64,000 bases of DNA from Salipaludibacillus neizhouensis (GTDB lineage Bacteria > Bacillota > Bacilli > Bacillales > Salisediminibacteriaceae): assembly GCF_002886185.1 (NCBI RefSeq), contig NZ_KZ614146.1, forward strand, positions 2,650,930 through 2,714,929, given 5' to 3'. Within the stretch, counting starts at the first letter, position 1. Every line of letters starts with the position of its first letter. Below the pieces are notes generated by a model. That model had not been told where the DNA came from. It saw only the letters and a list, made by a program, of their open reading frames with translations, and searched no databases. Made by a program: the position numbers and the translations under genes. Below are positions 13,295-18,194 of this stretch, piece by piece.

Positions 13295-14578
13295 TTACTC
13301 AATAAACTCGAATTCATGATCCAAGATTCGAACGATATCTCCGTCCTTGGCTCCTAAATCACGTAATCCTTGGTCAATACCCATATGGCGCATTTTTCTA
13401 GCAAATCTCTGGACAGAATCATGACGATTAAAATCAGTCATTTTAAATATGACTTCGATTTCGTGCCCTTCGATCGTAAATCCGCCATCATGATCTTTTG
13501 TAAGATTAAATGGAGCATCTTGTTGGGTATATTTATAAACAACACGTTGTTCCAATTCTTCTTCTTCATAAAGAGGAAATTCTGGTGTTGATTCCACTTT
13601 GTCTACAATACTCATTAGCAAACCGGACAGCCCTTGTTTGGTAGCTGCAGAAATCGAATGAATCTCAACGTCCTCACCAACCTGCTCTCTAAACAACTCC
13701 AAATTGTCCTCAGCACCAGGTAAATCCATCTTATTTGCCACGACAATTTGGGGTCTTTCTGTAAGCCTTAGATTGTACTCACTAAGTTCTAAATTTATCG
13801 TTTTATAGTCTTCAAAAGGATCTCGTCCTTCTATTCCACTCATATCAATAACGTGAACAATTACTCTTGTTCTTTCTATATGCCGTAAAAATTGGTGACC
13901 AAGACCTACTCCAGAATGAGCACCTTCAATTAGGCCAGGCAAATCCGCCATAACAAAACTACGGTGGTCTTCTGTCTCTACTACGCCTAGATTAGGAACT
14001 AAAGTAGTAAAATGGTAATCCCCGATTTTAGGTCGGGCTGCTGAAACGATAGAAAGAAGCGTTGATTTCCCTACACTTGGAAAACCCACTAAACCAGCAT
14101 CCGCTAATACTTTTAATTCCAGCACCAAATCCTTCTCTTGCCCAGGTGCACCATTTTCAGCAATCTCTGGTGCAGGGTTAGATGGTGTTGCGAACCGAGA
14201 ATTACCTCTGCCTCCGCGTCCAGCCCGTACAATAATTGCTCGTTGCTCATGTTCCGTTAAATCTGCCACTATCTTACCTGTTTTTTCATCTGTGACTGTT
14301 GTACCAGGTGGAACTCGAACTACCATAGGATCCATACTTTTCCCATGCTGGTTTTTAGGTCTGCCGTTTTCTCCACGATTAGCCTTGAAATGACGCTGAT
14401 AGCGAAAGTCCATTAATGTACGTAATCCCTCATCCACTTCAAAAACAACATCAGCACCTTTACCACCGTCGCCACCGGCTGGACCACCATCAGGTATAAA
14501 TTTTTCTCGACGATATGCAACTGTACCGTTACCACCGTCACCCGCTTTTACAAATATCTTTACTTTATCTACAAACAT
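13295..14578 (-). CDS. obg: Spo0B-associated GTPase Obg (CgtA)
   Basis: Obg is an essential GTPase tied to 50S ribosome assembly and, in B. subtilis, to stress and sporulation signalling. The 427-residue protein has the Gly-rich Obg fold ([10 protein letters not shown]...[11 protein letters not shown]), a GTPase domain with P-loop GFPSVGKST, switch DLPGLIEG, specificity loop NKMD and SAATKQG, and the C-terminal OCT domain of Gram-positive members. The start is placed at ATG 14578, after GAGGTGAAGG, giving MFVDKV as in B. subtilis. It follows the spo0B 3' fragment by 12 bases, so with spo0B broken by an insertion its transcription may depend on a promoter in or beyond the element. Confidence 0.97.
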
Positions 14579-14590
14579 ATCCTTCACCTC

Positions 14591-14879
14591 TTATCTGATA
14601 CTAGAACCATTCTCACTCGTATGGTGAGACCGTTTCCTTACTATGCCTTCTGGAAAAAAATTAACATAGCACTCAGATTCATTCCATTCTATTTGTTCAA
14701 TATTGTGTTCAAATTCCTTCTCAATCCGTCTAACTCTTTTTTCCATATCCTTAGTAAATGTTAAAGTCCCTTGAAAGTCAACTTCAATTGTTTTAGATTC
14801 AATATCACTGATCATAATCATCGCATGATGATCTTCACCATATACTCCCTCAGTTAGATTCTATTTACTCACAAATGCT
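14591..14879 (-). pseudogene. spo0B: spo0B, 3' fragment (C-terminal domain)
   Basis: Translation in the frame of 14821-14591, extended upstream, gives AFVSK, a TAG codon (14863-14861), then NLTEGVYGEDHHAM and a C-terminal piece with IEVDFQGTLTF and WNESECYVNFFPEG. This corresponds to the degenerate ATPase-like C-terminal domain of Spo0B (B. subtilis has LYLDFHGAF and ITSHECLIEIGLD at the same places). The fragment directly precedes obg, where spo0B belongs. It has no good start of its own. Together with the piece at 16642-16979 it makes one gene interrupted by an IS110-family element, and the in-frame TAG would stop translation even after precise excision. Confidence 0.85.
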
Positions 14880-14880
14880 C

Positions 14881-15200
14881 GCTTATTCGCAGGATTTCAG
14901 ACCACTTCTAAGAACAATGACGGATGAATGGAATGAGTTTTGATAATAAAGGCTACATGAAGGCATGCGGGAATAGAGGAGTCAATAGTAGCTCCATTTA
15001 TTTCCATAATATACTGCACGCATCTCCACGCCGCCCCTGGAGGCTATCCCTCCCATGTCTCAACGGGTCATTTGCCCTTTCATTCCTTCGTCATGCCTAT
15101 CCAAGGGGTGGAGGCCGGTTTTGCTGCGCAAACGGGTCAGTGCCCTTAGGTACAACGGTATCCAGTACTCCGCGCTTTCTCTGTAATCCTACGAATAAGC
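14881..15200 (-). ncRNA. Candidate bridge/seek RNA region of the IS110 element
   Basis: Bases 14881-14900 and 15181-15200 are inverted repeats matching at 18 of 20 positions (GCTTATTCG-AGGATT-CAG). They enclose about 280 bases that are richer in G+C than their surroundings. Inside, the unit AACGGGTCA...TGCCCTT occurs twice (15062 and 15131), and both can fold as small GGG/CCC hairpins. GCCTCCA-containing segments near 15030 and 15110 can also pair. IS110-type elements are known to express a guide RNA from a non-coding end; this is the only long non-coding end here. No RNA boundaries can be set from the sequence alone. An independent inserted element is the alternative. Confidence 0.4.
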
Positions 15201-15265
15201 CAACATTCAAGAATTATTAAACTACTTTTAATTACTTTAAAGCCTTACTTAGTTTACGATTAGAA

Positions 15266-16540
15266 TTAAGCTGCTATAGGTGCTAATGGTTGTACTTTCT
15301 GAGAACAATATGATTCATGATTTTTAGATATTGCCACCAATATTCTTGCTAATTTCCCCACGAGTTTCATGATAGATTTCATTTTTTTCATCTTTTTGAC
15401 TTTAACATTATTAAAATGAATCTGCTTGAAATCAGAGTTATTGCTCACAAGGCTTAATGTCGTTAAAAATAAAAATCGCCTTAGTCGAGATCTCCCACGT
15501 TTTGAAACGACAATTTGTCCTTTCCATTTACCCGAGCTTGCTTCTGCCAGATGTAGTCCCGCATGTCGTAATAGAGAATTACCATGCGCGAAGCCACTTA
15601 AATCACCAGCTTCTCCTAAAATACCCGCCAATGAAATTTCACTAATTCCTTCAATGGCAATTATTTTTTTAGCGAAAGTAATTTGATCAAGTACGGAAGT
15701 GACTTCTTTTTCTACTCTTTCGAGTTGGACTTTTGCTAAATCGAATTCTTCAAGTAAATGTTCTAAATGAAGCTTATAGGCTTCGTGTGCTTGTTTACTG
15801 CCTACAGAATTTTTTGCTAAGTCAATTAACGATTGTGCTTTTTTAAGTCCTGCGTGACGTTTCATCACTGTTTTCCAACCTTTCACTATATCCTGTGCTT
15901 TCATGGAACATAGTTCTGAAGGTGTAGGAAATAACCGAAGTGTTGCGATTGCCCCTTTTCCTTTTACATCTTTAAATACTTCTCGAAGTTCAGGGAAGAC
16001 AATATCTACCCAACGATTTATTTGGTTAATAGAACTGGTGAGGCGTTTAACGATTACATCTCGGTTAGCCATTAGCACTCGAAGCTTTTCAAAAGCTTCA
16101 GAAGTGGGCCGGATAAAGGAGTAATACCCATTCTTGATCATATCTGCAATCACAAGGGCATCTTTTTTATCGCTTTTAGATTGGGTATTATCACGATTTT
16201 CTTTATTTCTTTTCACATGGTGAGGATTAACGGTTACTACATCAATATCTTGATCATATAACCATTTAGATAGGTTCAACCAGTAATGTCCGGTAGGTTC
16301 CATCCCAACTATTTCAGTATTTAATCCTTTTGAAAGTTTTAAATGACAAATCCATTCCATTAATCTAGCGAAACCTTTCTCGTTATTTTCAAAAGTGAGA
16401 GGATCACCGACGACAATACCACGGAAATTTACAGCTCGTGCAACATGTACATGCTGTGCTATATCCACACCAACAACAAGATGTTTATCAGAAATTCTTT
16501 CAATTAGTTGATTTTGTTTGTCTTGCATTTTAAACTTCAT
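15266..16540 (-). CDS. IS110-family transposase
   Basis: The 424-residue protein has an N-terminal DEDD (RuvC-like) domain: VVGVDIAQHVH with the first Asp, VGMEPTGHYW with the Glu, and KSDKKDALVIADMI with the two C-terminal Asp residues. A coiled-coil-like middle (about 180-290) follows, and a C-terminal Transposase_20 domain with AGLHLAEASSGKWKG and VSKRGRSRLRRFLF, where the family's catalytic Ser lies. It looks intact. The start follows GGAGGAGCTC. It is a recombinase guided by a structured RNA in studied relatives. It has no relation to the surrounding sporulation genes other than having split one. Confidence 0.95.
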   Translation of the reverse strand: MKFKMQDKQNQLIERISDKHLVVGVDIAQHVHVARAVNFRGIVVGDPLTFENNEKGFARLMEWICHLKLSKGLNTEIVGMEPTGHYWLNLSKWLYDQDIDVVTVNPHHVKRNKENRDNTQSKSDKKDALVIADMIKNGYYSFIRPTSEAFEKLRVLMANRDVIVKRLTSSINQINRWVDIVFPELREVFKDVKGKGAIATLRLFPTPSELCSMKAQDIVKGWKTVMKRHAGLKKAQSLIDLAKNSVGSKQAHEAYKLHLEHLLEEFDLAKVQLERVEKEVTSVLDQITFAKKIIAIEGISEISLAGILGEAGDLSGFAHGNSLLRHAGLHLAEASSGKWKGQIVVSKRGRSRLRRFLFLTTLSLVSNNSDFKQIHFNNVKVKKMKKMKSIMKLVGKLARILVAISKNHESYCSQKVQPLAPIAA

Positions 16541-16641
16541 ATAAGAGCTCCTCCTTAGATTTGAGTTTTAGTTTGGTATCTATACTCTTATCTTACTGAG
16601 GGGCTCTATTTTTTTCAAAGTCGAAATTAACGCACTACAGG

Positions 16642-16979
16642 AATGCTGCATAGGTATCTAATAATTGAAATAACATCTCCAAAAAGGGATACACGGTATC
16701 TTCTACTTGAGACCAATCACTTTCATTGGTTATGACTTCAAAACTAATCCGGAACGAGTGATCTCCCCAATTAAATGTCAGTAGTTTTTCCGCAACTTTA
16801 TCCATCTTCAAGTGGGATATATGACTTTCATTCTTTGCTTTATTGACTATGTCTTCCACCAGTTTTTCTACTTTATCAACTCGTCCCATTGATAAATATC
16901 CATTTATTAGTTGCAGGTGATTTAACCAATCGTGACGTGAATGACGTAAAAGATTTAAGACATTCCATTCTGTCGCCAT
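16642..16979 (-). pseudogene. spo0B: spo0B, 5' fragment (phosphoacceptor helical hairpin)
   Basis: This piece encodes MATEWNVLNLLRHSRHDWLN and continues to ...MLFQLLDTYAAF before running seven bases into the insertion element, where a stop ends it after 114 residues. RHSRHDW holds the phosphorylated His of Spo0B (His 30 in B. subtilis, His 16 here), and the helical hairpin that forms the four-helix dimer is present. The C-terminal domain is separated by 1.76 kb. The ribosome site GAGGAGTG is intact, so the N-terminal half could still be made, but a functional phosphotransferase is doubtful. The gene is upstream of obg as in other Bacillaceae. Confidence 0.88.
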
Positions 16980-17069: not shown

Positions 17070-18194
17070 TTATTGCTTTGGGAATCTTAATTTAAATGCT
17101 GTCCATTTCCCTTCTGAATGGTATTCAATCGTTCCTTGATGCTTCTTCATAAGTTGCTTAGAAACAGTTAGCCCAAGTCCTTTTCCCATTTCCTTTGTCC
17201 CTACAAATGGCTCAAATATAGAATGTCTTATCACACTGGGGATCGGGGGACCATTGTTTGAAATCGTAATAATTAACGTATTAGATTTTTCCATAAGGCT
17301 TATGGCTAGTTTACGATCTTTTTCTTTTAATATTAGTGCATCATTAGCATTTTGTAATAACTTAAGTAATATCAGTTTTATTTGCTCTTCTATTCCTAAA
17401 ACCATTAGATTAGAAGTGAAATTAATTTCCATCTTAATTTTGTTTTGCATTAAAATTGGTCGAAAAGAATGAATTGCTTCGTTAAGTAAGTCACTTAATG
17501 AAATGTGAGTATTTATAACATCTTGATGATTTTTTTCATTTGACAATAATAATATTTGATTTACTTCCCGTTCTAATTCTTGCATCTCACGATAAATATA
17601 TTCGAAGTATCTCTTTTCCAGTTCCGGAGTATCCACTCGTTTCTCAAGAAGTTGAATAAACCCTTTAATAGACGTAAGCGGATTACGTATTTCATGAGCA
17701 AAACTAGTGGAAATTTGCGAAAGAATCTTCATTCTATCTTTCCTTAATTCCATTAATTCTATATTTTTAGAGTTTAATTCAATATTTTTTTCTTTAATTG
17801 TGTGTAAATATGTCTCCTTTTGTATTTCTAAAAAAAATTCATTTAATTTTGCTAATGCAAATGATTTCCCCTCAACATTACTTGGAGCATCTGAAATCCT
17901 ATGCTCCACGATTAACCGGCAGTCTTCAAAAACATCCAAAATATTCGCAACGCTTAAATTTATTTCGATTCGGAATTCCTCTACTTTTCTGCCGAATCCT
18001 GAGTAGTTCAGCATTTTATCTGTTGTAATCTTAAAGATGAATGTTTTTAATAAACTAGAAATTTCATTATGTAAATCTAACTCTTGGGTGCTCGTCATCG
18101 GGATGTTATGAAACAACAGCATCATTTCATTAACTATGTCATTTTTATTTTTTCGTAAATGATTCACAATTTCCAGTTCAACTATTGTATTCAT
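17070..18194 (-). CDS. Soluble histidine kinase, sporulation-kinase-like
   Basis: A 374-residue kinase without membrane segments. Residues 1-130 are a helical N-terminal sensor region of the type found in some Bacillus sporulation kinases (an RsbRD/HisK_N-like helical fold is possible but unproven). Residues 130-155 look like a coiled coil. The HisKA motif is FAHEIRNPLTSIKGFIQLLE with phosphoacceptor His 167, and the ATPase domain has an N box (LLQNANDAL) and GKGLGLTVSKQL. The His box resembles KinA-KinE. It lies 90 bases upstream of the broken spo0B, in the same direction. No response regulator is next to it, as expected for an orphan kinase feeding Spo0F. The ligand is unknown. Confidence 0.82.
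   Translation of the reverse strand: MNTIVELEIVNHLRKNKNDIVNEMMLLFHNIPMTSTQELDLHNEISSLLKTFIFKITTDKMLNYSGFGRKVEEFRIEINLSVANILDVFEDCRLIVEHRISDAPSNVEGKSFALAKLNEFFLEIQKETYLHTIKEKNIELNSKNIELMELRKDRMKILSQISTSFAHEIRNPLTSIKGFIQLLEKRVDTPELEKRYFEYIYREMQELEREVNQILLLSNEKNHQDVINTHISLSDLLNEAIHSFRPILMQNKIKMEINFTSNLMVLGIEEQIKLILLKLLQNANDALILKEKDRKLAISLMEKSNTLIITISNNGPPIPSVIRHSIFEPFVGTKEMGKGLGLTVSKQLMKKHQGTIEYHSEGKWTAFKLRFPKQ

What the first reader, a model, noticed from the sequence alone, without database searches (positions are those of the whole stretch)
14591..16979. spo0B is split by an IS110-family element and carries an extra stop codon
The two ends of a Spo0B protein (phosphoacceptor RHSRHDW in one part, the C-terminal ATPase-like domain before obg in the other) are separated by 1.76 kb of IS110 DNA. 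The six bases AATGCT occur at both junctions and rejoining restores the frame, except for a TAG at 14863-14861. Spo0B is the phosphotransferase between Spo0F and Spo0A in the known phosphorelay. The strain would need a bypass, a second Spo0B or have lost sporulation, although bofC, safA and a SASP gene remain.
Basis: partly seen in the sequence, partly recalled or inferred. Interest (0 to 1): 0.8.

Follow-up and report, generated by a model that had tools for sequence, protein, structure and literature searches.

The report
Sporulation relay gene cut by transposon
In a salt-lake bacterium the only spo0B gene, the middle step of the signal that starts spore formation, is cut in two by a recently inserted and probably RNA-guided jumping gene, while the same genome carries an extra, altered copy of the master switch Spo0A that might or might not make up for the loss.

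Summary
Confirmed: in a Salipaludibacillus genome spo0B is split by a 1.8-kb IS110-family element; no other Spo0B was found, and seven of seven congeners have one intact copy. One detail is wrong: the element ends 16 bases beyond the 'extra stop codon', so the TAG belongs to the transposon; five other copies, identical to each other over the whole element, carry it too. The shared core is AG, not AATGCT, and the spo0B halves meet in frame without a stop. The element has a long structured 3' noncoding end (IS1111-like layout) with guide-like loops that match one of its insertion sites almost perfectly and spo0B partly, so I read the event as a recent, probably RNA-guided, off-target insertion. 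Spo0F, Spo0A and SpoIIE are intact; the relay is cut at Spo0B. The surprise lies outside the window: alone among 35 family genomes, this one has a second full-length Spo0A, old and under purifying selection, changed at otherwise invariant receiver positions and carrying Q90K and D92Y. I recall these as B. subtilis changes that bypass Spo0F/Spo0B, but no held paper let me verify it. Poor or no sporulation is likelier; bypass through Spo0A2 is the bold, testable alternative.

The parts
16647..16979 (-). spo0B, 5' part (111 codons; the truncated frame runs on into the element to a stop at 16635)
   Evidence: SPOB_a and first half of SPOB_ab; alignment to congeners; coordinates checked
14591..14844 (-). 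spo0B, 3' part, up to its stop codon
   Evidence: second half of SPOB_ab; alignment
14845..16647 (-). IS110-family element with AG core at both ends (1,803 bases; core shared with spo0B)
   Evidence: ends set by aligning copies of the same genome
15266..16540 (-). IS110-family DEDD recombinase, 424 aa
   Evidence: PF01548, PF02371, NF033542
14873..15208 (-). predicted bridge-type RNA in the element's 3' end, closed by an imperfect 28-base inverted repeat (15181-15208 with 14873-14900)
   Evidence: fold of 14847-15265: -128.3 kcal/mol, z -3.27; three-type alignment; no Rfam family
15151..15157 (-). predicted target guide, right side (CGUUGUA)
   Evidence: pairs with the right flank of insertion L005 at 7 of 7
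15124..15131 (-). predicted target guide, left side plus AG core (UUGCGCAG)
   Evidence: matches the left flank and core of insertion L005 at 7 of 8
15081..15087 (-). possible donor guide (AGGAAUG, complementary to the element's left end CATTCCT)
   Evidence: present in the 3' end of three element types; pairing noted by eye
14861..14863 (-).
   Evidence: also in five other copies
17070..18194 (-). orphan histidine kinase gene directly upstream of spo0B
   Evidence: HisKA and HATPase_c; upstream of spo0B also in congeners
13295..14587 (-). obg, intact, downstream
   Evidence: open frame, aligned with Obg of related loci

Best explanation
The only Spo0B gene found in this Salipaludibacillus strain was recently knocked out by an IS110-family element. 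Its recombinase, probably guided by the RNA in the element's 3' end, recombined at an AG dinucleotide in spo0B whose flanks match the target guides only partly, that is, off target. The product of the 5' part keeps the histidine hairpin but lacks half of the C-terminal domain, so Spo0F~P can no longer feed Spo0A through a normal Spo0B. Shown: split gene, exact ends, identical sister copies, no other Spo0B match, intact Spo0F, Spo0A and SpoIIE. Inferred: RNA guidance of this insertion and loss of Spo0B activity. For the outcome I put little or no sporulation at about 0.6, bypass through the second Spo0A at about 0.2, reversal by precise excision at about 0.1.
For: Pfam matches and order of the halves; no other SPOB_ab match; element ends from sister copies; five other copies identical over 1,804 bases, hence recent movement; target guides that fit L005 at 12 of 13 bases exactly, 0 of 400 resampled RNAs doing as well, and the spo0B site at 7 of 13 exactly (1.7% of 12,381 background AG sites reach this) or 10 of 13 with wobble (0.47%); Spo0F, Spo0A and SpoIIE intact.
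Against: With guides left free, the spo0B site is no better than chance (399 of 400 resampled RNAs do as well), so guidance at this very site is weakly supported. The guides were picked by eye from other sites. Three of six copies with a readable left flank (L003, L004, L009) sit at sites that fit the sister element's guides rather than their own. RNA structure support is thin. No reads, no expression, no phenotype. The truncated Spo0B keeps its phosphoacceptor hairpin and could retain some activity.
Confidence: 0.85

Rival explanations
1. Natural bypass: the second Spo0A (Spo0A2, G000:C3:21083-21859) is a Sof-like response regulator that can take phosphate directly from a kinase, so spo0B could be lost without losing sporulation.
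For: Two full-length Spo0A here, one in each of seven congeners. Spo0A2 departs from columns invariant in 51 other Spo0A only at 90, 93 and 97 (Q90K, V93T, A97T) and also has Y92 and V22; phosphorylation-site residues D10, D11, D56, T86, K108 are kept. dN/dS 0.05. From memory, not verified: Q90K and D92Y are B. subtilis changes that bypass Spo0F and Spo0B. A spo0B deletion in Parageobacillus thermoglucosidasius still lets a few cells sporulate (PMC12692396, passages).
Against: Spo0B was not evolving faster than its neighbours before the insertion (tip length relative to S. daqingensis: spo0B 1.48, obg 1.49, kinase 1.36), so it had not long been dispensable. No kinase gene is recognisable among the ORFs listed around spo0A2. 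The two other genomes with two full-length Spo0A, and the rest of the 32 with two Spo0A_C matches, keep a Spo0B match. The papers on the suppressor alleles are not held.
Confidence: 0.2
2. Reversible switch: IS110-family elements can excise precisely, so a fraction of cells may restore spo0B and sporulate.
For: The halves join in frame at the AG core. [quoted passage not shown] IS621 can be made to excise DNA (PMC11208160, passages).
Against: No empty spo0B site in the assembly with up to two mismatches. Whether the bridge-RNA complex itself carries out natural excision is called unclear in PMC11208158 (passage).
Confidence: 0.1
3. Assembly artefact at a repeated element.
For: Runs of N adjoin three of seven copies (L004, L007, L008).
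Against: No N within the 4.3-kb locus of the spo0B copy; both halves lie on either side of one copy in order, orientation and frame with the AG core exactly shared, which a misjoin would not give.
Confidence: 0.02
4. Split Spo0B still works: the 5' piece with its histidine hairpin, alone or with the 3' piece, keeps enough phosphotransfer.
For: The hairpin with RHSRHDW is intact; the 3' piece has its own ATG frame.
Against: The break falls inside the SPOB_ab domain; nothing indicates that the 3' piece is translated.
Confidence: 0.06

Closest known systems
Spo0B of Bacillus (PDB 1IXM, 1F51, 2FTK, 9PHZ, 9PI0)
   Same: Same domains, and same gene order before obg; congener Spo0B profile matches these chains at E about 5e-30
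   Different: Interrupted in the second domain; a histidine kinase gene upstream instead of rpmA
IS110-family elements of the IS1111 group with bridge RNA (PMC11208160, PMC11208158; passages seen)
   Same: DEDD and Transposase_20 domains, dinucleotide core, long right end, guide-like loops matching target sites
   Different: Core AG, which is CT on the other strand; no convincing subterminal inverted repeat (8 bases, also reached by 132 of 500 shuffles); RNA unproven
Spo0A suppressor (sof-type) alleles of B. subtilis (recalled, no paper seen)
   Same: Q90K and D92Y in the receiver
   Different: Natural duplicate rather than a laboratory mutant, with further changes (V22, T93, T97, A98); N12 and E14 unchanged; function untested
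spo0B deletion of Parageobacillus thermoglucosidasius (PMC12692396; passages seen)
   Same: Loss of Spo0B; the authors infer some bypass
   Different: Engineered deletion there, natural insertion here
Direct kinase-to-Spo0A control in Clostridia (PMC12826061; introduction read)
   Same: What a bypass would look like
   Different: Here Spo0F is kept and the bypass is only a hypothesis

Membership tests
Spo0B | SPOB_a hairpin with phosphoacceptor histidine | tested here: met
   E 2.4e-21, RHSRHDW present
Spo0B | continuous C-terminal SPOB_ab domain | tested here: not met
   positions 2-50 and 71-111 on either side of the element
Spo0B | gene next to obg | tested here: met
IS110 family | DEDD domain plus Transposase_20 domain | tested here: met
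   NF033542 above cut-off
IS1111 group with bridge RNA | right noncoding end much longer than left | tested here: met
   107 bases left, about 420 right
IS1111 group with bridge RNA | subterminal inverted repeats of 7-17 bases | tested here: inconclusive
   8-base repeat, but 132 of 500 shuffles also have one
IS1111 group with bridge RNA | RNA loops complementary to target and donor | tested here: inconclusive
   L005, L011 and L013 sites 0 of 400 resampled RNAs, L012 13 of 400, L010 121 of 400, spo0B 399 of 400; donor match by eye
Spo0A (second copy) | full-length Spo0A above the TIGR02875 cut-off | tested here: met
   407.9 bits against a cut-off of 200
Sof-type Spo0A | changes at the known suppressor positions (list recalled) | tested here: inconclusive
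   K90 and Y92 present; N12, E14, P60, F88 unchanged; the list itself is from memory
Sof-type Spo0A | phosphorylation and sporulation without Spo0F/Spo0B | not testable with these tools
   needs biochemistry or genetics

The most novel reading that the evidence does not exclude
A natural rewiring of the sporulation phosphorelay: after an old duplication, Spo0A2 changed the part of its receiver that probably meets its phosphodonor (residue 22 and residues 90-98, with K90 and Y92), so that a kinase, perhaps the orphan kinase encoded just upstream of spo0B, can phosphorylate it directly; Spo0B then became dispensable and an RNA-guided transposon could remove it. It would be a spontaneous return from phosphorelay to two-component control in Bacilli.
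Probability: 0.18. Interest if true: 0.85.

Novelty: new variant of a known kind. Interest (0 to 1): 0.58.

Why it matters
Why Bacilli start sporulation with a four-step relay rather than a two-component switch is an old question. Here the relay is cut at Spo0B in a natural strain while Spo0F, Spo0A and SpoIIE are intact, and the same genome, alone among the 35 family genomes examined, has a second full-length Spo0A altered in the receiver around helix alpha-4. Looking for spores and removing one gene would separate ordinary loss from natural bypass. The genome also offers several insertions by related, probably RNA-guided elements with readable guide candidates.

Tried and rejected
AATGCT as junction or target duplication: rejected, it is element sequence at both places. 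Extra nonsense mutation in spo0B: rejected. Second Spo0B: no match. N12 or E14 changes in either Spo0A: absent. Long relaxation of Spo0B before the insertion: not seen in tip lengths; departures at columns invariant in the seven congeners are 13 of 71 in Spo0B, 19 of 331 in Obg and 15 of 123 in the kinase, against 4 of 62, 10 of 322 and 14 of 122 for S. daqingensis, which leaves a weak hint of faster change in Spo0B. Spo0F: the first candidate (regions fetched) turned out to be CheY-like (by eye); the intact Spo0F came. Rfam: one chance match (mir-511, E 0.7, below its gathering score). Papers on spo0A suppressor alleles: text searches and look-ups gave none of them. A second spo0A in print: search 81, listing only, five keyword hits, none opened. 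First genome-contig scan with the 5' piece alone found nothing. Scripts printed window positions that were not usable (20) or one base low (23); one search gives the checked ones.

Full report
WHERE. The window is C1:2650930-2714929 of a 5.51-Mb genome in 11 contigs. Its genus holds eight genomes here. The Spo0B of one of them (G003, locus L038) is 100% identical to that of Salipaludibacillus daqingensis, so the genus is Salipaludibacillus; CUR1 and S. keqinensis of this genus come from a soda lake and a salt lake (abstracts in the listing).

THE BROKEN GENE. The frame at 16635-16979(-) carries SPOB_a and the first half of SPOB_ab, the frame at 14591-14821(-) the second half. Aligned with intact congeners, both fall in the right order. 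The genome holds no other SPOB_ab match. Seven of seven congeners have one uninterrupted Spo0B match, with a histidine kinase gene upstream and obg downstream in the loci read. In the family, 33 of 35 genomes have a match, two (G011, G015) have none, and the window's genome is the only one with two half matches.

THE ELEMENT AND THE FALSE STOP. The recombinase occurs in seven copies with 100% identical protein and in four at 73%. Aligned copies put the ends at AGCATTCC... and ...CTGAGGGAG. Five (L003, L004, L005, L008, L009) are identical over the 1,804 bases compared; the spo0B copy differs at one base, synonymous, at 16448; L007 was not measured. The TAG read as a spo0B mutation lies inside the element, 16 bases from its right end. 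Joined at the AG core, spo0B reads 195 codons without a stop. No empty site is in the assembly with up to two mismatches.

HOW IT PROBABLY GOT THERE. The element has 107 noncoding bases before and about 420 after the recombinase frame. This is the layout of IS1111-group elements, which carry the bridge RNA in the right end (PMC11208160, passages). The 3' region folds at -128.3 kcal/mol, z -3.27. Three element types of this genome align there; on either side of a GGGC...GACCC motif lie bases that differ between types. In the type found in spo0B they include CGUUGUA and UUGCGCAG. Insertion L005 has TTGCAC|AG|TACAACG, 12 of 13 flank bases matching exactly and 13 of 13 with wobble; 0 of 400 resampled RNAs did as well. 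In the 73% type they include ACUUAAA and ACCUAUAG, and its four sites match 10 to 12 of 13; against resampled RNAs these four give 0, 0, 13 and 121 of 400. I picked the guide segments by eye from these sites, so these numbers describe more than they test. For the guides of the spo0B copy's own type I took L005, not spo0B: the spo0B site CTATGC|AG|TATATGG matches 7 of 13 exactly (1.7% of 12,381 background AG sites reach this) or 10 of 13 with wobble (0.47%). With guides left free it is unremarkable (399 of 400). L008, readable on the left only, matches 4 of 6 exactly and 6 of 6 with wobble; L003 and L009, and L004 on its readable left side, fit the sister element's guides instead, perhaps by mobilisation in trans. 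RNA structure is thinly supported: three sequences, 10 of 66 pairs with a change on both sides but a covariation term of +2.45; one of three target loops folds locally as drawn, and none folds better than its shuffles. The subterminal inverted repeat expected of the IS1111 group is not convincing.

WHAT IS LEFT OF THE RELAY. Spo0F is intact (C2:700602-700955, 65% identical to B. subtilis), SpoIIE is intact, and Spo0A1 is intact. The open frame before it looks like spoIVB by eye. Among the parts examined only the Spo0B step is broken; kinases other than the one in the window and later sporulation genes were not surveyed.

THE SECOND SPO0A. The Spo0A model finds two full-length genes here and one in each of seven congeners. 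The 12 further family genomes have one Spo0A_C match each; the 15 have one Spo0A each, G022's being interrupted by a stop and G031's short. Together that is 35 family genomes. Of 397 genomes of the order, 32 by my hand count have two Spo0A_C matches; searched with Spo0A2, three of these 32 have two full-length genes: this one (89% identical), G038 (52%) and G338 (51%). All 32 have a SPOB_ab match at E 1e-3, 28 of them over the cut-off, this genome's being the halves. Spo0A2 lies on contig C3 near what looks by eye like ilvD, so I take C3 as chromosomal; no kinase is recognisable by eye among the ORFs of at least 100-120 aa listed over the first 40 kb of C3. The two copies are sisters (SH-aLRT 93); Spo0A2 has the longer branch, 0.19 against 0.04. 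Synonymous divergence is about 1.26 and dN/dS 0.05, 0.027 in the DNA-binding part, so the duplication is old and both copies are constrained. Of 113 columns invariant in 51 other Spo0A, Spo0A2 departs at three, all between 90 and 97 (Q90K, V93T, A97T); 11 of the 113 lie in 87-107, P 7e-4, for a region chosen after looking. Y92 stands where 41 have D and 10 have E; V22 where 49 have Y and 2 have F. The 51 are full-length frames from loci in hand, best-scoring ones among them, not a random sample. D10, D11, N12, E14, D56, P60, T86, F88 and K108 are kept. The TTCGACAA box about 200 bases before Spo0A1, and before one congener's spo0A (L075), is missing before Spo0A2 (two other congeners were not matched by the script).

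WHAT THAT MEANS. I recall from the B. subtilis literature that changes at Spo0A 12, 14, 60, 88, 90 and 92, Q90K and D92Y among them, let Spo0A work without Spo0F and Spo0B. No paper saying so is held or was found. If it is right, the coincidence with a broken spo0B is striking. Against it, spo0B was evolving in step with its neighbours before the insertion, so it had not long been useless, and Spo0A2 may serve something else. A spo0B deletion in Parageobacillus thermoglucosidasius leaves a few sporulating cells and its authors suggest a bypass (PMC12692396, passages); many Clostridia phosphorylate Spo0A directly (PMC12826061, introduction). So bypass is possible in principle; plain loss, in nature or in culture, remains likelier.

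NOVELTY. IS insertions, bridge-RNA elements and Spo0B are known kinds. I found no account of a natural Sof-like Spo0A paralogue with a broken spo0B, but the only search aimed at a second spo0A was (listing only, in an open-access library), so this says little about the literature as a whole.

Noticed in passing
G000:C3:21083-21859 (-), locus L083: Second full-length Spo0A with K90, Y92, T93, T97, A98 and V22; not in the seven congeners.
   Followed up: yes
window 17070-18194; named loci L039-L046 and L048: A histidine kinase gene sits directly upstream of spo0B in 9 of 36 named loci (Salipaludibacillus, Evansella and one Litchfieldia record), where 20 of the 36 show an rpmA motif.
   Followed up: partly
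L003, L004, L009 (copies of the same element): These copies sit at sites that fit the guides of the 73%-identical sister element rather than their own, as if mobilised in trans or exchanged in place.
   Followed up: partly
flanks of L010-L013 and L015-L018: Several insertion sites look like the arms or loop of one AT-rich palindrome (around ACTAAACTCCCCTTTAGTTTAAG), perhaps a repeated intergenic hairpin that these elements target; seen by eye.
   Followed up: no
G069:C1:2915943-2916245; G022:C28:293469-294244; G031:C1:1422896-1423378: Other possibly broken early sporulation genes: a stop inside a weak Spo0B match of G069, an interrupted Spo0A in G022 and a short Spo0A match in G031.
   Followed up: no
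   Followed up: no
window 16933-16938 region of the 5' piece: The genus and the Evansella sequences aligned have RHYRHD around the phosphoacceptor; this genome has RHSRHD, as B. subtilis does.
   Followed up: no
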